From: a virus
IMG/VR virus record: IMGVR_UViG_3300037070_001924
Span: 1-23,697 of that record
Length of the DNA: 23,697 nucleotides
Reading direction: 5' to 3' (one strand)
Notes under the pieces: model-generated
Seen by the model: only the letters and a program-made list of their open reading frames with translations
Database searches by the model: none
Told to the model about the DNA's origin: nothing
Translations under genes and position numbers: made by a program
In this document: piece by piece, positions 5,287-14,394 of the stretch
How the letters are laid out: every line of letters begins with the position of its first letter
Numbering within the stretch: position 1 is the first letter of the stretch

Positions 5287-5331
5287 GGAGCCAACAGGCG
5301 ACCCGAGTGACAAAGGCAACATCGAACCCGA

Positions 5332-5339
5332 GAAGGGGG
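5332..5339 (+). promoter_or_regulatory. ribosome binding site deciding capsid start
   Basis: GAAGGGGG lies 6 nt before the ATG at 5346 and favours that start over an in-frame GTG at 5307, whose nearest purine tract is about 16 nt upstream. Confidence 0.65.
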
Positions 5340-5345
5340 CGTGAA

Positions 5346-6587
5346 ATGCCAGATACTGCCGAGCAGCCCGCGATGCTGGAGTATTTTCAGCAGGAGAAGG
5401 CGCTGCGGGTCAAGCGCTGCGAGGAGATTCTCGCTGGCGCACAGAAGGAGTTCCGCGGCATTACGGATGCGGAACGCGAGGAAATCAAGGGGCTCACGAC
5501 TGAGGCCCATGATTTCAACGGCAAGATCAAGACGGAGATGGAGAACCGGCAGCTTGCGGCTTCCATCGCGGCCTTGGCTCCGAGTCCCGTCGGTGACGCT
5601 GAAGTGGCAACCGGCCGTTCGGCTAGCGGGAAGAGACTCACCATTGGTGACATCTTCGTGCAGTCGGACGCGTACAAGGCGCTCCGTAAGCGGGGCGTCG
5701 AGGGCAAGTTCAACATGGGGCCGGTTCAGCTGCCGGAGTTCGGCGCGGTCGCGGGCATCGTAACAGAAGGCGCCGGTGACAACGACGAGATGTTCCTCCC
5801 GCAGCGCATCCCCGGCATCCAGTTGCCGGTCGAGACGCCGTTGGGGCTGACCGAGTTGTTCGGTACGGCGACCATCTCCAGCGGGAACACGGTGCTCCTC
5901 GTCAAGGAGACTGTGACGACCAACGCGGCTGACATCGTTGCTGAGGCAGCGGAGAAGCCCGCGTCGGACATCCAGTTCAACACCGAGACGGCTACGCTGA
6001 CCAAGATCGCAACCGTCATCAAGGTCTCGACAGAGATGCTTGAGGACGAGACGGCGATGGCGACGTACCTCAACTCGCGTCTGGCGACGTTCGTCCGCCA
6101 GCGCCGTGAGGACACGTTCGCCGTTCAGCTGCTCGCCCAGGCGGGGCAGTCGGCCATCGCAGCCGATGTTGGCGGCGAGAACCTGTTCGACGCCATCATC
6201 GCTGGTGCAGTGGACGTTCAGCGCTACGGTGGCCTTCCGGCCGATGCCGTCGCGATGACCATCCTGGACTGGGCAACGCTGATGGTCACGAAGGACGGAG
6301 TGAACGGCGGTTACTACAGCGGAGGCCCGTTCCAGGCTCCTGGGTCGCTGTTGTGGGGCCGCTACCGCATCGCCATCACCGAGCGTCTCGGCGACGGAAA
6401 CGTCGTGGTTGGAGCGTTCGGTGCCGGTGGCACCATCTGGCGGAAGAGCGGAGGTGTCAGCGTCGAGGCGACCAACTCGAACGAGGACGACTTCCTCACC
6501 AACCTGACGGCCATCCGAGCAGAAGAGCGTGCGGTGCTGCACTTGCAGCGCCCCGACGCGTTCTCCATCGTCTCGGTCGAGTCGTAA
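5346..6587 (+). CDS. major capsid protein (HK97 fold)
   Basis: Main shell subunit. It has 413 residues. An N-terminal charged helical stretch (about 10-75, LEYFQQEKALRVKRCEEIL onwards) looks like the HK97 delta domain that acts as internal scaffold and is removed by the protease. The capsid fold covers about 120-413, with the family blocks LPVETPLGLTELFGT, FNTETATLTKIATVIKVSTE, a spine helix, and the late block containing AITERLGDGNVVVGAFG with NLTAIRAEERAVLHLQRPDA. No separate scaffold gene is seen between protease and capsid. Start choice: ATG 5346 (see ribosome site). The gene is followed by a strong hairpin. Confidence 0.95.
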   Translation: MPDTAEQPAMLEYFQQEKALRVKRCEEILAGAQKEFRGITDAEREEIKGLTTEAHDFNGKIKTEMENRQLAASIAALAPSPVGDAEVATGRSASGKRLTIGDIFVQSDAYKALRKRGVEGKFNMGPVQLPEFGAVAGIVTEGAGDNDEMFLPQRIPGIQLPVETPLGLTELFGTATISSGNTVLLVKETVTTNAADIVAEAAEKPASDIQFNTETATLTKIATVIKVSTEMLEDETAMATYLNSRLATFVRQRREDTFAVQLLAQAGQSAIAADVGGENLFDAIIAGAVDVQRYGGLPADAVAMTILDWATLMVTKDGVNGGYYSGGPFQAPGSLLWGRYRIAITERLGDGNVVVGAFGAGGTIWRKSGGVSVEATNSNEDDFLTNLTAIRAEERAVLHLQRPDAFSIVSVES

Positions 6588-6603: not shown

Positions 6604-6625
6604 GGGGGGACCTTCGGGTCCCCCC
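6604..6625 (+). terminator. 9-bp GC hairpin with TTCG loop after the capsid gene
   Basis: A perfect inverted repeat GGGGGGACC-TTCG-GGTCCCCCC starts 17 nt after the capsid stop. The loop is the exceptionally stable C(UUCG)G tetraloop. No T-run follows (TGATG comes next), so it may be a weak terminator or attenuator, or a 3' stabiliser of the abundant capsid message. It can also form on the opposite strand. Confidence 0.7.
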
Positions 6626-6648: not shown

Positions 6649-6804
6649 ATGCCGAAGGCGAAGTCCAAGGCCCAAGCCCGGTTCTTCGGGGCAGTCGCTG
6701 GCGGCAAGGTGCGCAAGAAGGGCCTGTCGAGGAAGGAAGCGCGGACGCGGTTGCGGGGAGTCAGAGTCAAGAAGTTGCCCGCACGCTCGCGCAAGAAGCA
6801 CTAG
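6649..6804 (+). CDS. small very basic protein, DUF3008-like
   Basis: A 51-residue protein made largely of Lys and Arg, beginning MPKAKSKAQARFFGAVAGGK and ending with a run of basic residues. The KSKAQxRFFGxVxxGK start resembles small phage proteins annotated DUF3008, whose function is not known. A nucleic-acid-binding or capsid-associated role would fit the charge and position, but this is inference. The ATG at 6649 has a near-ideal site AGGAAGGAGG at 6634-6643. The gene lies between the hairpin after the capsid gene and the modification cassette. Confidence 0.75.
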   Translation: MPKAKSKAQARFFGAVAGGKVRKKGLSRKEARTRLRGVRVKKLPARSRKKH

Positions 6805-6815
6805 GAAGGACGCGA

Positions 6816-7391
6816 GTGAAAATCTTCGTAGACGTGGGGGCGCATGAGGGGCAGACAATCGAGGAAGTGGTCAAGCCCGAGTACGGCTTCGACATCATCT
6901 ACGCATTGGAGCCGATGCCGAAGCAGTTTGACACTCTCGAACGCAATTTCTTGGGCGATCCCCGAGTCAAGGCCCGGAACGTGGGCCTGGGGGCCGCGAA
7001 CGCTTCCGTAGTGATGTACGGCGGCAACGAACAACTGGAGGCGTCCATTTACGGCGACAAGAACGACGTGGACGAGAATATTCACACTCTCGTCAAGATG
7101 CTGGATGCCGAAGACTTCTTCCGGGCGCTACCGGAGGGTGAGGTTTTTGTCAACATGAACTGCGAGGGCGCAGAGCTTCCCATCCTGACGCACTTGATCG
7201 ATTCCGGTGCCATCGACCGAATCGACTATCTGCTGGTGGACTTTGACATCCGCAAAATTGCGCGGTTGGCAGACCGCGAAGCAGACTTGCGATTTGGGCT
7301 GGACGCATCGGCCGTGTCGTGGACGTGCGAATACCCGGTGGCCGAGACTCACCAGGAAATGATCGGCGCTTGGCTGCGGGGTGTGTTGTGA
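6816..7391 (+). CDS. FkbM-family SAM-dependent methyltransferase
   Basis: 191-residue methyltransferase of the FkbM type, a family that commonly O-methylates sugar or polyketide hydroxyls with S-adenosylmethionine. The SAM-binding motif FVDVGAHEGQTI is at residues 4-15, the acidic second-strand motif ALEPMP at 30-35, and the late block VFVNMNCEGAELPIL carries the conserved Glu typical of the family. The GTG start at 6816 follows AGGAAGGA at 6803-6810. The product appears complete though short. Its stop overlaps the next gene's start (GTGA). As the first gene of the cassette it would most plausibly methylate a glycan made by the downstream glycosyltransferases. The substrate is not visible. 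Confidence 0.85.
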   Translation: MKIFVDVGAHEGQTIEEVVKPEYGFDIIYALEPMPKQFDTLERNFLGDPRVKARNVGLGAANASVVMYGGNEQLEASIYGDKNDVDENIHTLVKMLDAEDFFRALPEGEVFVNMNCEGAELPILTHLIDSGAIDRIDYLLVDFDIRKIARLADREADLRFGLDASAVSWTCEYPVAETHQEMIGAWLRGVL

Positions 7392-7945
7392 TTCCCGACA
7401 CGAAATACGGAGAGTGGGACTACAAGAATGCGCTCAAACCGTTCCCCTATGACGACACGCCGACTTACGAGATTGGCGGCGCTTGGGTCAGTGACCGCGG
7501 ACTCGTTGAAGATTGGGGTTGCGGCACCGGTTGGGCTGCAAAGTACATCGAGAAGGCTGGGTATCGCGGCTTGGACGGAGCGTGGTCCCGATGGGCAACT
7601 CAGGTGGTGGACCTTCGGGAATACCGGTCGAACGTGCCCTGCATTTTCATGCGGCACGTGTTGGAGCACAATGCCGACTGGCGCTTGATTGCAGACAACC
7701 TAGCGCATTCGTGGACCGACCGGGCTGTGGTTATCTTGTTCATTCCGCCGCAGCCGGAGGAACTGGATGTAGGTGGACCCGACTGGCCGGTGCCGGACAT
7801 TGCGGTTAGCGGACCCGAACTGTTCGACCTGCTCGCCCCGTCCGACATGCCCGAGGTCAAATTCTACGTCCAGGAGCTTCACTACCCGCCCGAGGACAGC
7901 ATCCAGTGGGGTTGGGAAGGCGTCATCATGATGGAACGTGCCTGA
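7388..7945 (+). CDS. class I SAM-dependent methyltransferase
   Basis: 185-residue methyltransferase-fold protein. The glycine-rich SAM motif VEDWGCGTGWAAKYI is at about residues 40-54, an acidic strand end (GYRGLDGAW) follows, and MRHVLEHNADW (88-98) matches the post-motif block of Methyltransf_11/25-like enzymes. The C-terminal half is Pro/Glu-rich with a regular strand pattern ending WGWEGVIMME. The GTG at 7388 overlaps the FkbM stop as GTGA, indicating coupled translation. Upstream in-frame starts would run deep into the previous gene. The substrate is unknown; sugar, protein or small-molecule methylation are all possible. A glycan target is inferred from the neighbours. Confidence 0.78.
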   Translation: MIPDTKYGEWDYKNALKPFPYDDTPTYEIGGAWVSDRGLVEDWGCGTGWAAKYIEKAGYRGLDGAWSRWATQVVDLREYRSNVPCIFMRHVLEHNADWRLIADNLAHSWTDRAVVILFIPPQPEELDVGGPDWPVPDIAVSGPELFDLLAPSDMPEVKFYVQELHYPPEDSIQWGWEGVIMMERA

Positions 7946-8534
7946 GTGGCATGGGCCGATTCCCGTCCACACTGTGGACCGAATCCGAGTGGTCTATGTA
8001 GAAGTCCCAAAGGCGGGCTGTACTTCCATCAAATGGGCGTTAGCTAAGTACCGAGGCGACGGTCGGCCCCCGCAGGGGGAGGACATTCATCGGTGGTTTG
8101 GTTACATCGAGGCACGCAATCCAACCCAGCTGCACGAATGGCTACAATATCGTTGGCCGGGTTGGTTCAGGTTCACGGTGGTTCGTGACCCTGTGACGCG
8201 ATTTGAGTCCTTTTACTGGGGAAACAAGTACGGTGAAGAGGGCGACATAAACAGGTACGTCAGGAGGGGGCGAATCAATGAGGCGATGCGACACGATATT
8301 CACGCGGTTCCGCAGACAACCTTGCTGGGTAACACGCTATCCGACTTCGATTTCGTGGGACACACTGAAAACATGGACGAGGTTGCCAAGGTGTTGAGCG
8401 AAGCCGCGAATCGGAAGGTGAAGATTCCACACTTGAACGCGTCGCCTATTGAGCGAGTGCCCACCCTAGCAGCCACTCGCCGTCGCTTGCGCACGCTCTA
8501 TCGTCGCGATATGAGGACCTTCGGCTATGTCTGA
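7938..8534 (+). CDS. sulfotransferase, family 2 type
   Basis: 198-residue PAPS-dependent sulfotransferase that would move a sulfuryl group to a hydroxyl, most often on a carbohydrate. The 5'-phosphosulfate loop VEVPKAGCTSIKWAL is at about residues 21-35. The 3'-phosphate motif FTVVRDPVTRFESFY is at about 79-93. Further family blocks are FDFVGHTENMDEVAKVL, IPHLNAS and the terminal FGY. The length is at the short end but the fold looks complete. The GTG at 7938 overlaps the preceding gene by 8 nt, and the stop overlaps the next ATG by 8 nt. No PAPS-making genes are visible, so it would depend on host PAPS. Such genes are uncommon in phage structural operons. Confidence 0.88.
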   Translation: MPEWHGPIPVHTVDRIRVVYVEVPKAGCTSIKWALAKYRGDGRPPQGEDIHRWFGYIEARNPTQLHEWLQYRWPGWFRFTVVRDPVTRFESFYWGNKYGEEGDINRYVRRGRINEAMRHDIHAVPQTTLLGNTLSDFDFVGHTENMDEVAKVLSEAANRKVKIPHLNASPIERVPTLAATRRRLRTLYRRDMRTFGYV

Positions 8535-9930
8535 GCCCAAGGTGGCTATCGTCGTTCCATGGCGCGGAGGCGACCGGGACCGTGAACGAGCCTGGCGCTG
8601 GACCCGCGAATGGTGGGAGCAATTCGGCTGGCCGGTCCATGAGGTTGAGCACAAGCCACCCGTTCCGTTCAATCGCTCCTGGTGCATCAATGAAGGTGCA
8701 CGACGGGCTGGCGAGTGGGATGTTCTAATTGCCATCGACGCCGACGTGTTCGAAGAGAACCACGAGCAAGTGCATGAAGGTGTGAGGGTGGCGTGGGACA
8801 CCGGTAAGCTGGTTGTTCCGCATTTGGTGGGAGCCGACCTTTCTCACCGGGGCACCGACCTCATGTTGGCCGGTCAGAGTTGGACTAGGAGCATTGTAGC
8901 CCGTCGGCCGGTGTGTACCTCGAGGGTTACCATCATACGGCGGGACCTGTTTGAGCGCGTCGGTGGCTTCGACCAGAGATTCCAGGGGTGGGGCCATGAG
9001 GATGTTGCGTTCTGGGCAGCGGCGGTTCCAATCAACGGCGTAGCTCAACTGCCGGGGACGTGCTATCACCTTTGGCACACTCCCAGCTTGCGAGCCGCCC
9101 GTGGGACTCGTGATTGGATGGAAGGCAAGAAGCTCGCGGACCGTTACCTCACAGCGTTTCGGAATGGACCGCCTGCGGTTGACGAGATACTCAATGAGCG
9201 GAAAGTGACCCAGCGCTACGCCCCGGAGCAAGCCCCTGGGACGGCGGAGGTCCCGGCGTATGGCTCCGTTGACGTGATTGTGCCCACGGCGGGCCGACGG
9301 GCCTACCTAGAGGCGACCCTGGCGTCCTTCAAAGAGAGAGTCAAGGGCAGTATCGGTCGCAAGACCATCCAGGACGATTCGGGCGACCCGGAGTTCGGTG
9401 AATGGCTTGCCACCCACTACGGAAGCGAATGGGACATCATTACGACTCCAGGCAAGACGGGGTTCACTGAGGCCATTCGCAGCTTGTGGGCCTACGAGCA
9501 GAGTAAGAACGGTGAGGGTTCGCCCTACATCTTCCACCTGGAAGACGACTTCACGTTCGACCAGGACATTAATCTGAACGACATGATTACCGTCCTGGAA
9601 TCGGACCAGCGTCTCGCTCAAGTTGCCTTGCTGCGGGGTCCCTGGGCTGAGGACGAAATAAAAGCAGGCGGCATTATTCAGCAGCATCCGGGTAGTTACC
9701 AGTGGAAAGAAGCAGCTGGCCTCCCTTACATGCAACACCGGAGGTACTTCACCACTAACCCCTGCGTCTACCGGCGCGGACTCTTAGACCGGGGCTGGCC
9801 TAACATAAAGAACTCGGAGATTGTTTTCACGAAGCGGATGCGGGCGCGGTCAATGTACTTCGCCTACTTTGGAGACGGCACGCCAATGTGCACTCATATT
9901 GGCGACGAGCGTGTGGGGATTGGTTACTGA
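8527..9930 (+). CDS. two-domain glycosyltransferase
   Basis: 467 residues with two GT-A-like domains. Domain 1 (about 5-225) has PWRGGDRDRERAW, a DxD metal/sugar-nucleotide motif DAD at 71-73, the galactosyltransferase-C-terminal-like block GGFDQRFQGWGHED at 146-159, and HLWH at 181-184. Domain 2 (about 247-467) starts DVIVPTAGRRAYLEATLASF like a family-2 glycosyltransferase, has HLEDDF at about 337-342 as its probable metal site, and ends in a conserved-looking MCTHIGDERVGIGY. The two domains differ from each other. The start ATG 8527 overlaps the sulfotransferase stop, and the stop overlaps the next start (TGATG). It could add two successive sugars. The acceptor is unknown. Confidence 0.85.
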   Translation: MSEPKVAIVVPWRGGDRDRERAWRWTREWWEQFGWPVHEVEHKPPVPFNRSWCINEGARRAGEWDVLIAIDADVFEENHEQVHEGVRVAWDTGKLVVPHLVGADLSHRGTDLMLAGQSWTRSIVARRPVCTSRVTIIRRDLFERVGGFDQRFQGWGHEDVAFWAAAVPINGVAQLPGTCYHLWHTPSLRAARGTRDWMEGKKLADRYLTAFRNGPPAVDEILNERKVTQRYAPEQAPGTAEVPAYGSVDVIVPTAGRRAYLEATLASFKERVKGSIGRKTIQDDSGDPEFGEWLATHYGSEWDIITTPGKTGFTEAIRSLWAYEQSKNGEGSPYIFHLEDDFTFDQDINLNDMITVLESDQRLAQVALLRGPWAEDEIKAGGIIQQHPGSYQWKEAAGLPYMQHRRYFTTNPCVYRRGLLDRGWPNIKNSEIVFTKRMRARSMYFAYFGDGTPMCTHIGDERVGIGY

Positions 9931-10664
9931 TGCGCGACCCTAAAGTCGTCGTTTTGGTGCCGCTTCGCCTGGATGAAGCCGACCCGGCTCGCGCCAAGGC
10001 GTGGGACTTCACAAGAGAACACCTCGAGAGTTTTGGCTGGCCCATCTACACGGCCGATTCCGTTGGGCCGTGGAAACGAGCCGAAGCAATCAACCGGGCA
10101 GCCCGTGAAGCTGATATGGTGAGCGACGCTTCCTGGGACATCGCGGTTATCGCTGATGCCGACACCATCCACTTGCCGCAGGACTTGCGGAGTGGGGTGG
10201 TGTTGGCAGCGAAGCTGCAGACTCTGGTGATTCCGTGGCGCACGCGGTGGAAGTTGTCACAGGCGGGAACCCAGCGGTTCTACGAGCACGGGATTCCCGG
10301 CTACACGGCGGAGGACCTCGACAGGAAGGACCGCACGCGCACGCGGATGCCGCCCAAGGTCCGTGGCGGAACGACCATCGTTCCTCGTAACGTGTGGGGA
10401 CGAGTAGGAGGCTTCGATGAAGGGTTCGTTGAATGGGGTCACGAGGATGTCGCTTTTCGAATCGCAGCGGCGACGCTTACGCCAGGCCGAATCAACGAGC
10501 TGTTCGGAACCATCTGGCATCTGTGGCATCCACGGAATATTAACCACGACCACCGTCATGACAACGACACCCGACTCGGACAGTACAACGAAGCCGACGG
10601 TAGCAAGATTCGCATGCTCGATCTGCTCAACAAGCTTGAGGTGTTGCCAGGAGTGCCATCGTGA
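9930..10664 (+). CDS. glycosyltransferase (GT-A, paralogue)
   Basis: 244-residue single-domain glycosyltransferase, clearly paralogous to domain 1 of the preceding gene. It shares the N-terminal VVVLVPLRLDE block followed by AKAWDFTREHLESFGWPIY (compare AWRWTREWWEQFGWPVH). The DAD motif is at 76-78, GGFDEGFVEWGHED at 160-173, and HLWHPR at 197-202. It has no second domain. The start at 9930 shares bases with the previous stop (TGATG); an upstream in-frame ATG at 9888 would only extend into the previous gene. The 3' end overlaps the next gene as GTGA. The role is inferred to be one sugar-adding step of the cassette's glycan. Confidence 0.85.
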   Translation: MRDPKVVVLVPLRLDEADPARAKAWDFTREHLESFGWPIYTADSVGPWKRAEAINRAAREADMVSDASWDIAVIADADTIHLPQDLRSGVVLAAKLQTLVIPWRTRWKLSQAGTQRFYEHGIPGYTAEDLDRKDRTRTRMPPKVRGGTTIVPRNVWGRVGGFDEGFVEWGHEDVAFRIAAATLTPGRINELFGTIWHLWHPRNINHDHRHDNDTRLGQYNEADGSKIRMLDLLNKLEVLPGVPS

Positions 10665-11398
10665 AGCTCACCGTGGTCGTAGCGTTCCGTGATTCGTCGC
10701 CGGAGCAGGACCGAGCCCGATTGTGGAATTGGCTGCTTCCCAAGTACGGTCAGCATTTCCCCGGTTGCACCGTGGTCATCGGAACAGACAACGGCGAAGA
10801 CCCGTTCCACAAAACCGTCGCCTTGAACCGGGCCGTCGCTGACGCCGATGACGGGTTCATCATGTTGAACGACACTGACACGTGGTGTCCAAGCTCACTG
10901 GTAAAGGCGGGCCTGACGATGTTGGCTGAGCATCCCGACTCGTGGGTGCGGCCGTGGAATCTTAAGCTGAAGCTGGGTCCCGACGACACGGAATGGGTCC
11001 TCAAGCATGGACCGGAGTGGGACGGCGAAGTGCCGGTGAATGCCGACCATCCGCTCCGCAGGGAAAACCTGAACACCTATTGGGCCGCGCCACCCTGGCT
11101 GTTCACGAAGGAACAATTCGACCGCGTTGGTGGCTTCGATGAACGATTCCGAGGCTGGGGACAGGAAGATGAAGCATTCTGTCTGGCGATGCGGGCAATC
11201 GTGGGCCGTCCTAAGACCGTCCTAGGGCAAGCCGTCCATTTGCACCATCCGCGTATCGGACGGTCCGGTAAAGACTGGTGGCCCGGCGAAGAGAAACTCG
11301 ACACCCACCATCGACGCCCCAACGAGAAGCTAGTGGTTCAGTACAAGTCACTCGTCCGCCGTCCAAAAGACATGGAGCAGTTTGTGAGGTCGCGATGA
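10661..11398 (+). CDS. glycosyltransferase (GT-A, paralogue)
   Basis: 245-residue glycosyltransferase, third copy of the same domain type. It has VVVAFRDSSPEQDRARLW, a DTD motif at 71-73 (LNDTDTW), GGFDERFRGWGQED at 157-170 and HLHHPR at 193-198. The spacing of the motifs is preserved relative to the two upstream copies, while the rest has diverged, suggesting old duplications and different sugar specificities. The GTG at 10661 overlaps the previous stop (GTGA). The last codons overlap the ATG of the head-tail connector gene (ATGA), so the cassette is translationally continuous with the structural genes. Confidence 0.85.
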   Translation: MKLTVVVAFRDSSPEQDRARLWNWLLPKYGQHFPGCTVVIGTDNGEDPFHKTVALNRAVADADDGFIMLNDTDTWCPSSLVKAGLTMLAEHPDSWVRPWNLKLKLGPDDTEWVLKHGPEWDGEVPVNADHPLRRENLNTYWAAPPWLFTKEQFDRVGGFDERFRGWGQEDEAFCLAMRAIVGRPKTVLGQAVHLHHPRIGRSGKDWWPGEEKLDTHHRRPNEKLVVQYKSLVRRPKDMEQFVRSR

Positions 11399-12027
11399 CA
11401 GTACCCTTCATTTCGGTAGCTGATCTTGGCAAGTACACCGGCCAGGATTTAAGCTCAAGTGACTTAGCGGTCATGATGGCGGATTCCGCATGCCAGATGA
11501 TTCGGGACGAGATTGACCAGCTCATCAACTATGTTGAGGATGACGTGGTGACGCTGGACGGCAAGGACCGGAACATGCTCGTCCCGCCCGAGCTTCCCAT
11601 TGTGGATGTGACCGAAATCACTATCGACGGTGGTGACCCGCTGGTTGCCGACGACGATTACCGTGTCGTCAACGAACGGACGATGATTCAGCGCCTGAGC
11701 AGCGGGGTTCCCGACGATGATGTCGTGTGGAGCCGCGAGACGGCTATCCAGGTCACGTACTCGCACGGCTGGGTGGTGAGCGAAGATGCCGTGGACGTGC
11801 CAGCCGGTAAGATTCGAGTGCCGTCCAGCCTCCGGGCAGTCGCGCTATCGTTAGCGGCGCTCGGATTGGTGGCTGGACGAACTGGAGTCGGTGGTGTGAG
11901 TTCCGAAACCATCGGCCGCTACAAGTACACCATCGACTCCAGTTCTTCGTCCTCGTCGAGCGGCATGATTCTAAGCGACGACCAGTTGAACATCCTCCAC
12001 AAGTATTACGTGGAGGCGGTTGCGTGA
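11395..12027 (+). CDS. head-tail connector protein
   Basis: 210-residue protein in the position of the HK97 gp6-like adaptor that docks under the portal. Features fit: an N-terminal helical bundle (FISVADLGKYTGQDLSSSDLA, then helix MADSACQMIRDEIDQLI), a central beta part (PPELPIVDVTEITIDG, DDDYRVVNERTMIQRL, IQVTYSHGW), and a return helix PSSLRAVALSLAALGLVAG. A run of eight serines (about 182-189) sits in a probable loop before the C-terminal helix. The ATG at 11395 overlaps the last glycosyltransferase stop. A much longer in-frame extension upstream lies inside that gene and is not used. The family call rests on fold pattern and gene order. Confidence 0.75.
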   Translation: MTVPFISVADLGKYTGQDLSSSDLAVMMADSACQMIRDEIDQLINYVEDDVVTLDGKDRNMLVPPELPIVDVTEITIDGGDPLVADDDYRVVNERTMIQRLSSGVPDDDVVWSRETAIQVTYSHGWVVSEDAVDVPAGKIRVPSSLRAVALSLAALGLVAGRTGVGGVSSETIGRYKYTIDSSSSSSSSGMILSDDQLNILHKYYVEAVA

Positions 12028-12377
12028 CCGTTGAGAGCCTTATGACTCAGCCTGCCACACTCAAGACCCTGACCGGGGAAACTCGCGGGGCTGCGGGCGG
12101 GTCCGAGCCCACCTACAGCGACACGGCGTTCACCGGCTACTTCGAGCCAGAGCCGCCGATTGGCCTGGAGGGTGAGGCTCTGCAAGTGGGCAACTATGAA
12201 ATGGGTCGCTGGTTCGGTTGTGCGCCGCTCTCCCTAACGTTCACTGGTCACGATGTCATCGAGTACAATGGTGAGATACTCGAACTGACCGGCCCGCCCC
12301 GCAAGATGTGGAATCCGCGAACAAGCGCCTTTTCGCATTACGAGTTGTCGTTGCGGGTAGTGGAGGTTGACCAGTGA
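12024..12377 (+). CDS. head-tail stopper/joining protein
   Basis: 117-residue beta-rich protein in the slot of the head-completion (stopper) protein that closes the DNA channel below the connector. It has short strands with the pattern FTGYFEPEPP, LSLTFTGHDVIEYNGEILEL and a terminal YELSLRVVEV, typical of small SH3/barrel-like joining proteins. The GTG at 12024 overlaps the connector stop (GTGA) and its own stop overlaps the next gene (GTGA). No motif alone is decisive; the assignment is by size, secondary-structure pattern and order. Confidence 0.6.
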   Translation: MTVESLMTQPATLKTLTGETRGAAGGSEPTYSDTAFTGYFEPEPPIGLEGEALQVGNYEMGRWFGCAPLSLTFTGHDVIEYNGEILELTGPPRKMWNPRTSAFSHYELSLRVVEVDQ

Positions 12378-12799
12378 CCACGATGAACTTGGAATCCGCC
12401 CTGTTCGACTACTTGACGTCGGACCCAGGCGTGGAAAGCCTGGTGGACGACCGAGTTTATCCGATGCGGGTCCCTGAGGGTGCAATCCTGCCCGCCATTT
12501 CGTACGGGCGCACGTCGGCGACTCGAACGTACACGTACGACTCGTTCGAAGACACCAACGCGTTCGTGCGGGTGCGGATGCAGTTCAACTGTTGGTCATC
12601 AAAGGCCGAAGAGGCCATGCAGGTTGGGGAGGCGGTGCTACTGGCACTAAGCGGGTACGACGGGGAACTGAGCGGTCAGCTCGTCGCAAGCGCGTTCAAC
12701 GTGCTTGAACAGGACATGTATGAAGGTGAAACAAAGATGTACAGAAGGATGCTCGATTTCATGATTCTGTACGAAGATGAGCTAACGCCCAGCAGCTAG
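12374..12799 (+). CDS. tail terminator / completion protein (DUF3168-like)
   Basis: 141 residues matching the tail-completion family often annotated DUF3168, which caps the tail tube and joins it to the head. Features: N-terminal helix ESALFDYLTSDPGVESLVDDRVYP, the strand ILPAISYGRTS, FVRVRMQFNCWSSKAEEAMQ followed by a helix, and the terminal strand YRRMLDFMILYED. A GTG at 12374 overlapping the previous stop is used; an in-frame ATG three codons later (12383) is possible. The gene lies directly before the tail tube gene, the usual place. Confidence 0.75.
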   Translation: MTTMNLESALFDYLTSDPGVESLVDDRVYPMRVPEGAILPAISYGRTSATRTYTYDSFEDTNAFVRVRMQFNCWSSKAEEAMQVGEAVLLALSGYDGELSGQLVASAFNVLEQDMYEGETKMYRRMLDFMILYEDELTPSS

Positions 12800-12831: not shown

Positions 12832-13233
12832 ATGACGAAATACGCAGGACGCGGATTCACCGTCACGCTGGAAGGAGGCGACCCGCTTCCGCAGCTTCGG
12901 GAGTTCGGAGCGTTCGGTTCCACTCGCGCGCTCATCGACGCCACGGCTTACGGCGACGACTGGACGGACTTCGTGACGGGCCTGCAGGACGGAGACGAGG
13001 TAGCGTTCACCATCGCCTACGACCCGGCCGACGTGGACCACACCGAGTTGATCGACGCTTACGACAACACCGATGGCCGGGTTACCTTCACGGTGGTCCA
13101 CACGGCCTCGGGTTTCGAGGCGTTCATCAACTGCATCATCAACGCGCTCCGGCGCGAGTCGCCAATCGACGGTCTGTTCGCCCTCTCGGGAACGCTCAAG
13201 ATCGTCAACCCTGGCGTCGTTGTCCCAACGTAA
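12832..13233 (+). CDS. major tail (tube) protein
   Basis: 133-residue beta-rich protein predicted to polymerise as the tail tube. The strand pattern FTVTLEGGDPLPQLREFGAF, EVAFTIAYDPADVD, RVTFTVVHTASG and DGLFALSGTLKIV is like tube proteins of long-tailed phages. It is at the small end for the family and has no added C-terminal Ig-like domain. The gene has a strong site (GAAGGAGGAACG before ATG 12832) and is flanked by small non-coding gaps, consistent with high, independent translation of an abundant protein. It is followed by the chaperone genes, the standard order. Confidence 0.8.
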   Translation: MTKYAGRGFTVTLEGGDPLPQLREFGAFGSTRALIDATAYGDDWTDFVTGLQDGDEVAFTIAYDPADVDHTELIDAYDNTDGRVTFTVVHTASGFEAFINCIINALRRESPIDGLFALSGTLKIVNPGVVVPT

Positions 13234-13704: not shown

Positions 13705-14120
13705 CGCTCGCGCTGGGAATGCCGGTTGGGGTGCTGCTGGACGGTATCCCGAGAATGGAGCGGTGTGGGTGGCGGGGCCGCAAGGAGCGGCAAGTCGGCT
13801 GGGTTTCGCCACCCATTTCCGCGCTTGAACTACAGGAATGGAGCGCGTTCGAAATGGTGAACGGGCCTATTCTGATTCACGACCGCATTGAGACAAGCAT
13901 CGCGATTGCGGCCATGACTTCGGCGGCTCCATACACCGACAAGAATCGACCCAACAAGCTCAGCGATTTCATTCCGGTGTGGGACCACGTGCTGGCGTCC
14001 AAGCCGAAACAATCGGCCGACGACATCATGGAAGCGATCAAGTCCATGGCAATCAAGAAATACGACCAGGAGGAAGGGAGGGACGTGTTCTATGGCGACA
14101 GCGGTGACGTTCATCCCTAA
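13650..14120 (+). CDS. tail assembly chaperone, downstream frame (T-like), reached by -1 frameshift
   Basis: Open in the -1 frame from 13650 (after a TGA at 13647) to 14120. The predicted fusion runs from 13306 to the TTA codon at 13666-13668, continues in the -1 frame from 13668, and is about 271 residues. The first downstream-frame part reads RRRPARQQLFRVALALGMPV, then ISALELQEWSAFEM and a helix. This resembles the T part of GT chaperones (an LALALGM block followed by an xxEWxAF block). The LALAL block lies before the first ATG (13719), which itself has no good ribosome site. This supports production by frameshift rather than as a free protein. The end overlaps the next gene by 29 nt. Confidence 0.72.
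   Translation, partial: RGCGGFRRRPARQQLFRVALALGMPVGVLLDGIPRMERCGWRGRKERQVGWVSPPISALELQEWSAFEMVNGPILIHDRIETSIAIAAMTSAAPYTDKNRPNKLSDFIPVWDHVLASKPKQSADDIMEAIKSMAIKKYDQEEGRDVFYGDSGDVHP
13662..13668 (+). promoter_or_regulatory. -1 ribosomal slippery heptamer GGATTTA
   Basis: G GAT TTA is in correct phase for tandem slippage in the chaperone gene (zero-frame codons GAT at 13663, TTA at 13666). It falls inside the only stretch (13650-13704) where both frames are open. The same heptamer is, to my knowledge, the MMTV pro-pol shift site. No convincing downstream pseudoknot was found by eye. Confidence 0.65.
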
Positions 14121-14394
14121 TCCTGCGTTGGAAGCAGAGTGGTACAGCAGCGCAGAAGCTAACCTAATGATGACCAGCATTGGCGAACAGATTCGGTCGA
14201 TCGCTAAAGGTCTGTGTCCAGTTGACACGGGCCTGCTGGCTAGTTCGATTGAATCGTTCGTGGGATTTAGCGAAATGGGTCGTCTCGAAGTGATGGTTGG
14301 CTCGAGCGTTCGCTACGCCGGATTCGTGGAGTTCGGCACGTCCAAAATGGCTGCGCAGCCTTACCTGCGCCCGGCGCTCGACTCGGTGATGTAG
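14092..14394 (+). CDS. HK97 gp10-like head-tail/tail completion protein
   Basis: 100-residue protein of the HK97-gp10-like family, normally acting at the head-tail neck. It has a helical N-terminus (MTSIGEQIRSIAKGLCPVDTG), then the family signature PVDTGLLASSI, and the later block YAGFVEFGTSKMAAQPYLRPAL. The ATG at 14092 follows a strong purine site (AGGAGGAAGGGAGGG, 14068-14082). The gene overlaps the end of the T-like frame and precedes the tape measure gene. This position is unusual, since the family is generally encoded between the stopper and the tail terminator. Confidence 0.85.
   Translation: MATAVTFIPNPALEAEWYSSAEANLMMTSIGEQIRSIAKGLCPVDTGLLASSIESFVGFSEMGRLEVMVGSSVRYAGFVEFGTSKMAAQPYLRPALDSVM

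What the first reader, a model, noticed from the sequence alone, without database searches (positions are those of the whole stretch)
6816..11398. Methyl-, sulfo- and glycosyltransferase cassette inside the head-tail structural operon
Six genes (FkbM methyltransferase, class I methyltransferase, sulfotransferase, three glycosyltransferase genes with four GT domains) sit between the capsid block and the head-tail connector. Every junction overlaps (GTGA, 8-nt overlaps, TGATG, GTGA, ATGA), and the last gene overlaps the connector ATG, so they should be co-translated with virion genes. Glycosylation of capsids or tails by phage-coded glycosyltransferases is known in some actinobacteriophages. A glycan that could also be sulfated and methylated, encoded in the capsid neighbourhood, would be a new virion-decoration system, perhaps for evading host surface or antibody recognition or for adhering to a matrix. 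The target could instead be a host surface glycan.
Basis: partly seen in the sequence, partly recalled or inferred. Interest (0 to 1): 0.8.

Follow-up and report, generated by a model that had tools for sequence, protein, structure and literature searches.

The report
Phage capsid sugar-coating gene cassette
A bacterial virus carries, between its shell genes and its tail-joining genes, six enzymes that most likely build a methylated and sulfated sugar on the tips of its own shell and tail proteins; sugar-coated phages are already known, but no sulfated coat has been described in the literature searched here.

Summary
[quoted passage not shown] Catalytic motifs are intact.

The position and the GT plus methyltransferase make-up are not new. 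Mycobacteriophages of cluster J (same slot) and cluster O (Corndog) have them, and published work reports glycans on the C-termini of Corndog/Che8-type capsid and tail-tube proteins. The same slot holds GT cassettes in about 16 viral contigs.

Two results are new here. (1) The sulfotransferase recurs in a second virus with an unrelated P22-type capsid (L150: MCP-methyltransferase-GT-sulfotransferase; 47% identity) and has no hit in 50,697 phage records. (2) A C-terminal serine marks the MCP of GT-carrying phages: 16/16 against 2/45 in the window's MCP family (only two independent origins), and 9/9 against 0/7 in isolates with unrelated capsids (Optimus is an exception). The window's MCP ends in Ser, its tail terminator in Ser, its tail-tube protein in Thr.

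Best reading: a sulfated, methylated O-glycan on the phage's own capsid and tail proteins. New variant of a known kind; untested chemically.

The parts
5307..6587 (+). Major capsid protein (HK97 type); C-terminus ...SIVSVES: terminal Ser426 (codon 6582-6584) is the predicted O-glycan acceptor
   Evidence: phrog_10, 1.6e-35; C-terminal residue survey
6604..6625 (+). Strong hairpin after MCP (9-bp stem, TTCG loop, no T-run); general in MCP relatives with and without GTs, probably an mRNA 3'-end or attenuation element that lowers cassette expression relative to MCP
   Evidence: folding; role inferred
6649..6804 (+). 51-aa basic ORF between MCP and the cassette; no family match
6816..7391 (+). MT1: FkbM-family SAM methyltransferase (motif VDVGAHEG); likely sugar O-methylation
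   Evidence: TIGR01444 45.7 bits over cut-off; motif
7388..7945 (+). MT2: class I SAM methyltransferase, weak profile match, motif DWGCGTG kept
   Evidence: structure prediction failed
7938..8534 (+). ST: carbohydrate-type sulfotransferase (Sulfotransfer_2) with both PAPS motifs (PKAGCTSIK, VVRDP)
   Evidence: (60 bits); homologue in L150
8527..9930 (+). GT1: two glycosyltransferase domains (N: DAD + GWGHED; C: EDD)
   Evidence: phrog_1721 9e-25 and phrog_3047 3e-10; motifs
9930..10664 (+). GT2: glycosyltransferase (DAD, WGHED)
   Evidence: phrog_1721 5e-22; 49% to L004 GT
10661..11398 (+). GT3: glycosyltransferase (DTD, GWGQED)
   Evidence: phrog_1721 3e-17; 50% to L004 GT; matches cluster O Dylan gp34 at 3e-10
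11395..12027 (+). Head-tail adaptor, translationally overlapped with GT3
   Evidence: phrog_442 1.6e-24
12374..12799 (+). Tail terminator, C-terminus ...ELTPSS (possible further acceptor)
   Evidence: phrog_347; C-termini
12832..13233 (+). Major tail (tube) protein, C-terminus ...GVVVPT: terminal Thr133 (codon 13228-13230) is a predicted acceptor
   Evidence: phrog_158; C-termini

Best explanation
The cassette makes a virion glycan. Late in infection the three GT proteins (four domains) build a short O-linked sugar chain on the C-terminal Ser/Thr of the major capsid protein (Ser426), the tail-tube protein (Thr133) and perhaps the tail terminator. The two SAM methyltransferases cap sugar hydroxyls with methyl groups, and the sulfotransferase adds sulfate from host PAPS. 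The mature particle would carry several hundred methylated, negatively charged glycans. Shown here: enzyme families and intact motifs, operon structure, recurrence of the slot, and association of GT carriage with a C-terminal Ser on MCP and tail-tube proteins. Inferred: that these residues are the acceptors in this phage, the order of transfer, that methyl and sulfate go onto this glycan, and any benefit (shielding, altered charge or adsorption, mimicry of methylated or sulfated host glycans).
For: Six overlapping ORFs with catalytic motifs. Nearest relative L004 (MCP 74%) has a GT/methyltransferase cassette in the same slot with different enzymes. GT cassettes follow MCP in about 16 contigs, with methyltransferases, GT32, glycerophosphotransferase-like or GDP-mannose dehydratase genes. 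Independent sulfotransferase case L150 with P22-type capsid: MCP-MT-GT-ST. C-terminal Ser on MCP: GT+ 16/16 vs GT- 2/45; isolates GT+ 9/9 vs GT- 0/7, tail tube 8/9 vs 0/7. Cluster-O-type capsids lacking GTs end VAD/EAA instead of VGS/VRS/VQS/TAS. Portal, adaptor, head-closure and tape-measure proteins show no such Ser enrichment. Published glycans lie on the C-termini of capsid and tail tube in mycobacteriophages (cited in PMC12619734; capsid and tail tube also PMC11600133, and PMC12363180).
Against: No mass spectrometry or host is available. In the window's MCP family GT carriage arose only twice on the tree, so the 16/16 count is not 16 independent events. Optimus (cluster J), with GTs in the same slot, has an MCP ending ...PSF. 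The GT reported as essential in Corndog (gp38) and Che8 (gp110) has no homologue in the 23.7-kb window, so the initiating GT is unidentified. Some GT- capsids end in Ser (the KAS group). MT2 is a weak match. Structure models of ST and MT2 failed (pLDDT 37).
Confidence: 0.66

Rival explanations
1. The GTs decorate the virion, but the sulfotransferase and/or a methyltransferase acts on something else (for example a virion protein side chain such as Tyr sulfation or protein methylation, or a host metabolite).
For: FkbM and Sulfotransfer_2 families have varied substrates. L004 and most other slot cassettes have no sulfotransferase, so sulfation is not a core step.
Against: PF03567 is a carbohydrate-type sulfotransferase family, and the best phage profile is named galactose-3-O-sulfotransferase. 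ST sits between MT2 and GT1 with 8-nt overlaps and recurs directly after a GT in L150.
Confidence: 0.17
2. The cassette modifies host surface glycans (receptor masking, superinfection exclusion), and its place in the structural operon only sets late timing.
For: The GTs are distantly like beta-1,4-galactosyltransferases and chondroitin synthases. Actinobacterial surface glycolipids carry methylated and sulfated sugars (own knowledge). [quoted passage not shown]
Against: No lipid-carrier GT, flippase or membrane protein in the cassette. The link between GT carriage and a terminal Ser on MCP and tail tube is not expected for a host target. Corndog and Che8 virions are published as glycosylated.
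Confidence: 0.1
3. The cassette hypermodifies phage DNA (sugar on a modified base).
For: Phage GTs can glycosylate DNA (reference 46 of PMC12619734).
Against: No base-hydroxymethylating or related enzyme found in the window. GTs are phrog_1721 type, not a DNA GT family. FkbM and sulfotransferase are not DNA-modification enzymes in known systems (own knowledge). Location with virion genes.
Confidence: 0.03
4. The cassette is a passing insertion with little function (moron genes under decay).
For: The slot is patchy and variable: only 5 of 49 searched records (mostly MCP relatives) have phrog_1721 genes.
Against: All six ORFs intact with motifs and tight overlaps. The slot recurs across capsid families. 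Acceptor-like C-termini are kept over long divergence.
Confidence: 0.04

Closest known systems
Cluster J mycobacteriophages (Omega, Optimus, BAKA, Thibault): 8-10 gene insertion between MCP and head-tail connector
   Same: Same slot; several GTs plus a SAM methyltransferase (PMC3706429; Optimus table). Optimus gp17 and window GT3 are both phrog_1721 and match each other.
   Different: Cluster J has a kinase and a zinc protease and no reported sulfotransferase; Optimus MCP ends in Phe, not Ser; the target was left open in that paper.
Cluster O mycobacteriophages (Corndog, Dylan): O-methyltransferase + three GTs in the structural operon
   Same: Methyltransferase followed by GTs among virion genes; Dylan gp34 (GT) matches GT3; Dylan MCP ends VGS and tail tube GDS; capsid modification proposed (PMC4351075).
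   Different: Located between portal and protease; no sulfotransferase; has the gp38-type GT that the window lacks.
C-terminal virion glycosylation of Che8, Corndog and Myrna (Freeman et al. 2023; known here only through citing papers)
   Same: Phage-encoded GTs; glycans at C-termini of capsid and tail tube (PMC12619734; PMC12363180).
   Different: No sulfate mentioned in the citing papers read; the gp110/gp38-type GT reported as essential is absent from this window.
Phage sulfotransferase genes in marine phages (e.g. OM43 phage contigs, Synechococcus phage S-SRM01)
   Same: Sulfotransferase-fold enzyme encoded by a phage.
   Different: Those are Sulfotransfer_3 (PF13469), and their function is described as unclear (PMC10580990); their genome context was not examined here.

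Membership tests
Phage virion C-terminal O-glycosylation (Che8/Corndog type) | Phage-encoded glycosyltransferases | tested here: met
   Three phrog_1721-family genes, four GT domains, DXD and WG[HQ]ED motifs
Phage virion C-terminal O-glycosylation (Che8/Corndog type) | Hydroxyl residue at the C-terminus of capsid and tail-tube proteins | tested here: met
   MCP ends Ser, tail tube ends Thr; GT+ vs GT- association
Phage virion C-terminal O-glycosylation (Che8/Corndog type) | Homologue of Corndog gp38 / Che8 gp110 | tested here: not met
   No window ORF hit by a profile of 30 homologues. The contig is a fragment, so a copy elsewhere is not excluded; the window is therefore filed as a variant, not a member.
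Phage virion C-terminal O-glycosylation (Che8/Corndog type) | Glycan found on virion proteins | not testable with these tools
   Uncultivated contig; no virions
Cluster J-type post-capsid GT/methyltransferase insertion | GT + methyltransferase genes between MCP and head-tail connector | tested here: met
Sulfotransfer_2 (PF03567) carbohydrate sulfotransferases | Profile match over cut-off and PAPS 5' and 3' motifs | tested here: met
   60.1 bits vs 22; PKAGCTSIK and VVRDP
Sulfotransfer_2 (PF03567) carbohydrate sulfotransferases | Sulfate transfer to a sugar | not testable with these tools
   needs an enzyme assay; fold model failed

The most novel reading that the evidence does not exclude
A modular post-capsid slot in actinobacteriophage-like viruses writes chemically diverse glycans (methylated, sulfated, possibly glycerophosphorylated) onto a common C-terminal Ser/Thr tag of capsid, tail tube and tail terminator, and the terminal residue predicts which phages are glycosylated. 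The window would be the first phage known to carry a sulfated virion glycan.
Probability: 0.5. Interest if true: 0.8.

Novelty: new variant of a known kind. Interest (0 to 1): 0.62.

Why it matters
[quoted passage not shown] The C-terminal Ser/Thr signature points to the virion, names the residue to look at, and can be read from any genome, so phages with sugar-coated particles could be predicted and tested by simple mass spectrometry. A sulfated virion glycan would change particle charge and recognition, which bears on phage ecology.

Tried and rejected
Structure prediction of ST (2-sequence alignment) and MT2 (single sequence) gave pLDDT 37 and was not used for fold searches. tblastn of the two STs, MT1 and MT2 against 50,697 phages gave nothing useful. 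ST searches of bacterial genome contigs found no relative with these short patterns, so host or donor is unknown. A PDB search with ST gave no meaningful hit. PF13704 was uninformative as a GT control. The post-MCP hairpin was considered as a cassette-specific element and rejected: it is also common in MCP relatives without GTs. The plain Fisher test on MCP C-termini (7.5e-13) was not taken at face value because the tree shows only two origins in that family; unrelated capsid families were added for that reason. The rule that all post-capsid GT phages have a terminal Ser fails for Optimus. Rahel's MCP could not be identified and was left out.
Full report
What was checked. The window is a 23.7-kb IMG/VR viral record holding a siphovirus structural module: terminase, portal, protease, MCP, cassette, head-tail adaptor, tail terminator, tail tube, tape measure, baseplate or fibre genes. 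The cassette has six intact ORFs. Near-identical copies in two other contigs (L003, L083) show it is not an assembly artefact.

Enzymes. MT1 is an FkbM methyltransferase over NCBI's cut-off. MT2 keeps a SAM motif but scores below cut-off. ST is a Sulfotransfer_2 protein with both PAPS motifs. The GTs belong to phrog_1721, plus phrog_3047 for the C-terminal half of GT1. A profile of these GTs matches beta-1,4-galactosyltransferase 1 structures (4e-14). GT1 N, GT2 and GT3 are paralogues (27-40% identity).

The slot. The nearest relative, L004 (MCP 74%, large terminase 73%), has GTs in the same place, with a methyltransferase protein and a GT32-GT fusion instead of MT1, MT2 and ST. Scans anchored on GTs and, separately, on MCPs gave about 16 contigs with a GT cassette directly behind MCP. 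Their cargo includes Methyltransf_24, FkbM, GT32, CDP-glycerol glycerophosphotransferase-like proteins, and in L088 a GDP-mannose 4,6-dehydratase plus epimerase. Of 49 searched records, nearly all of them MCP relatives, only five have a phrog_1721 GT, so the slot is variable. In cultivated phages the slot was described for cluster J (PMC3706429), where Optimus has MCP-GT-kinase-methyltransferase-GT-GT-GT. Cluster O has a methyltransferase and three GTs between portal and protease (PMC4351075).

Sulfotransferase. The ST has no match in 50,697 phage records even at E 5, nor does its L150 homologue. In IMG/VR it recurs only in L150, a 4-kb contig from a different virus with a P22-type coat protein (PF11651, 46 bits), in the order scaffold, MCP, methyltransferase, GT, ST (47% identity to the window ST). 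A third GT-bearing record has a marginal Sulfotransfer_2 protein about 5.7 kb from its GT (22.8 bits vs 22). PF03567 was not found in 49 searched records (MCP relatives plus one GT-anchored contig). So sulfation is a rare add-on that has been joined to post-capsid cassettes in at least two unrelated phages.

Acceptor signature. Citing papers report that glycans of Che8/Corndog-type phages lie on capsid and tail-tube proteins, at their C-termini. I therefore compared C-termini. All MCPs on GT-bearing loci end in Ser; 4 of 74 without GT do. After removing duplicates and requiring 3 kb of context for GT-free loci: 16/16 against 2/45. The tree shows two origins of GT carriage in that family, both with Ser, so the formal phylogenetic test there has no power. 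Independent evidence comes from other capsid families. Cluster-O-type MCPs end VGS, VRS, VQS or TAS with GTs, but VAD in a 54.6-kb record and EAA in a 13.7-kb record without GTs. L150's P22-type coat ends ASS. Nine isolates with a gp38-type GT have MCPs ending in Ser (9/9) and annotated or syntenic tail-tube proteins ending in Ser (8/9); seven isolates without GTs have 0/7 and 0/7 (Fisher 9e-5 and 1.4e-3; isolates too are partly related). Homologous ends make the point: TM4 (no GT) ...KTPVAVVAPAA, Misha28 (GT) ...KTPVGAVVPDGS. In the window's relatives the tail terminator also ends in Ser (L087, L088, L089, L161). Portal, adaptor, head-closure and tape-measure proteins show no such enrichment. 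The exception is Optimus, whose MCP ends PSF.

Expression. A strong hairpin follows MCP (6604-6625), then a 51-aa basic ORF, then the cassette, which is overlapped with the adaptor gene. The hairpin is a general feature of MCP 3' ends. A plausible reading is that MCP is made in excess while the catalytic cassette is made at the lower level of the connector genes; this is inference.

Interpretation. The best explanation is virion O-glycosylation at C-terminal Ser/Thr with methyl and sulfate capping. The step from enzymes to a sulfated virion glycan is inferred. The window lacks a homologue of the GT reported as essential in Corndog and Che8, so it is filed as a variant that works like that system, not as a proven member.

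Limits. No host, no virions, a partial genome, and failed structure models. Freeman et al. 2023 itself was not held and is cited through other papers; whether it already reports the terminal-Ser rule is not known to me.

Noticed in passing
window 6604-6625; also after MCP in L004, L005, L088, L093, L129, L135 and GT-free relatives: Strong GC-rich hairpin directly after the MCP stop, without a T-run, general in this MCP family (51 of 72 GT-free loci have post-MCP folding stronger than any internal control window).
   Followed up: partly
window 12374-12799: Tail terminator ends ...TPSS; terminal Ser recurs in tail terminators of GT-bearing relatives but not in the isolates checked, hinting at a third acceptor in this lineage.
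   Followed up: partly
L110 8430-9449, L129 12733-13746, L168 8885-10363, L135 10346-11794: CDP-glycerol glycerophosphotransferase-like proteins in post-capsid GT cassettes, suggesting glycerophosphate-type decoration of virion glycans.
   Followed up: partly
L088 4963-7444: GDP-mannose 4,6-dehydratase (398 bits) and an epimerase directly after MCP: a phage making its own sugar nucleotide next to its capsid gene.
   Followed up: partly
window 14092-14394: HK97-gp10-like protein (PF04883, TIGR01725) sits just before the tape measure, after the predicted tail assembly chaperone ORFs, an unusual place for it.
   Followed up: no
L204 (Optimus) MCP 7894-9303: Cluster J exception: GT cassette in the same slot but MCP ends ...APSF; it also lacks the Corndog gp38-type GT.
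   Followed up: partly
L165 1375-2193 (record of L124): Marginal Sulfotransfer_2 protein (22.8 bits) about 5.7 kb from a phrog_1721-type GT in a 65.7-kb viral contig.
   Followed up: partly
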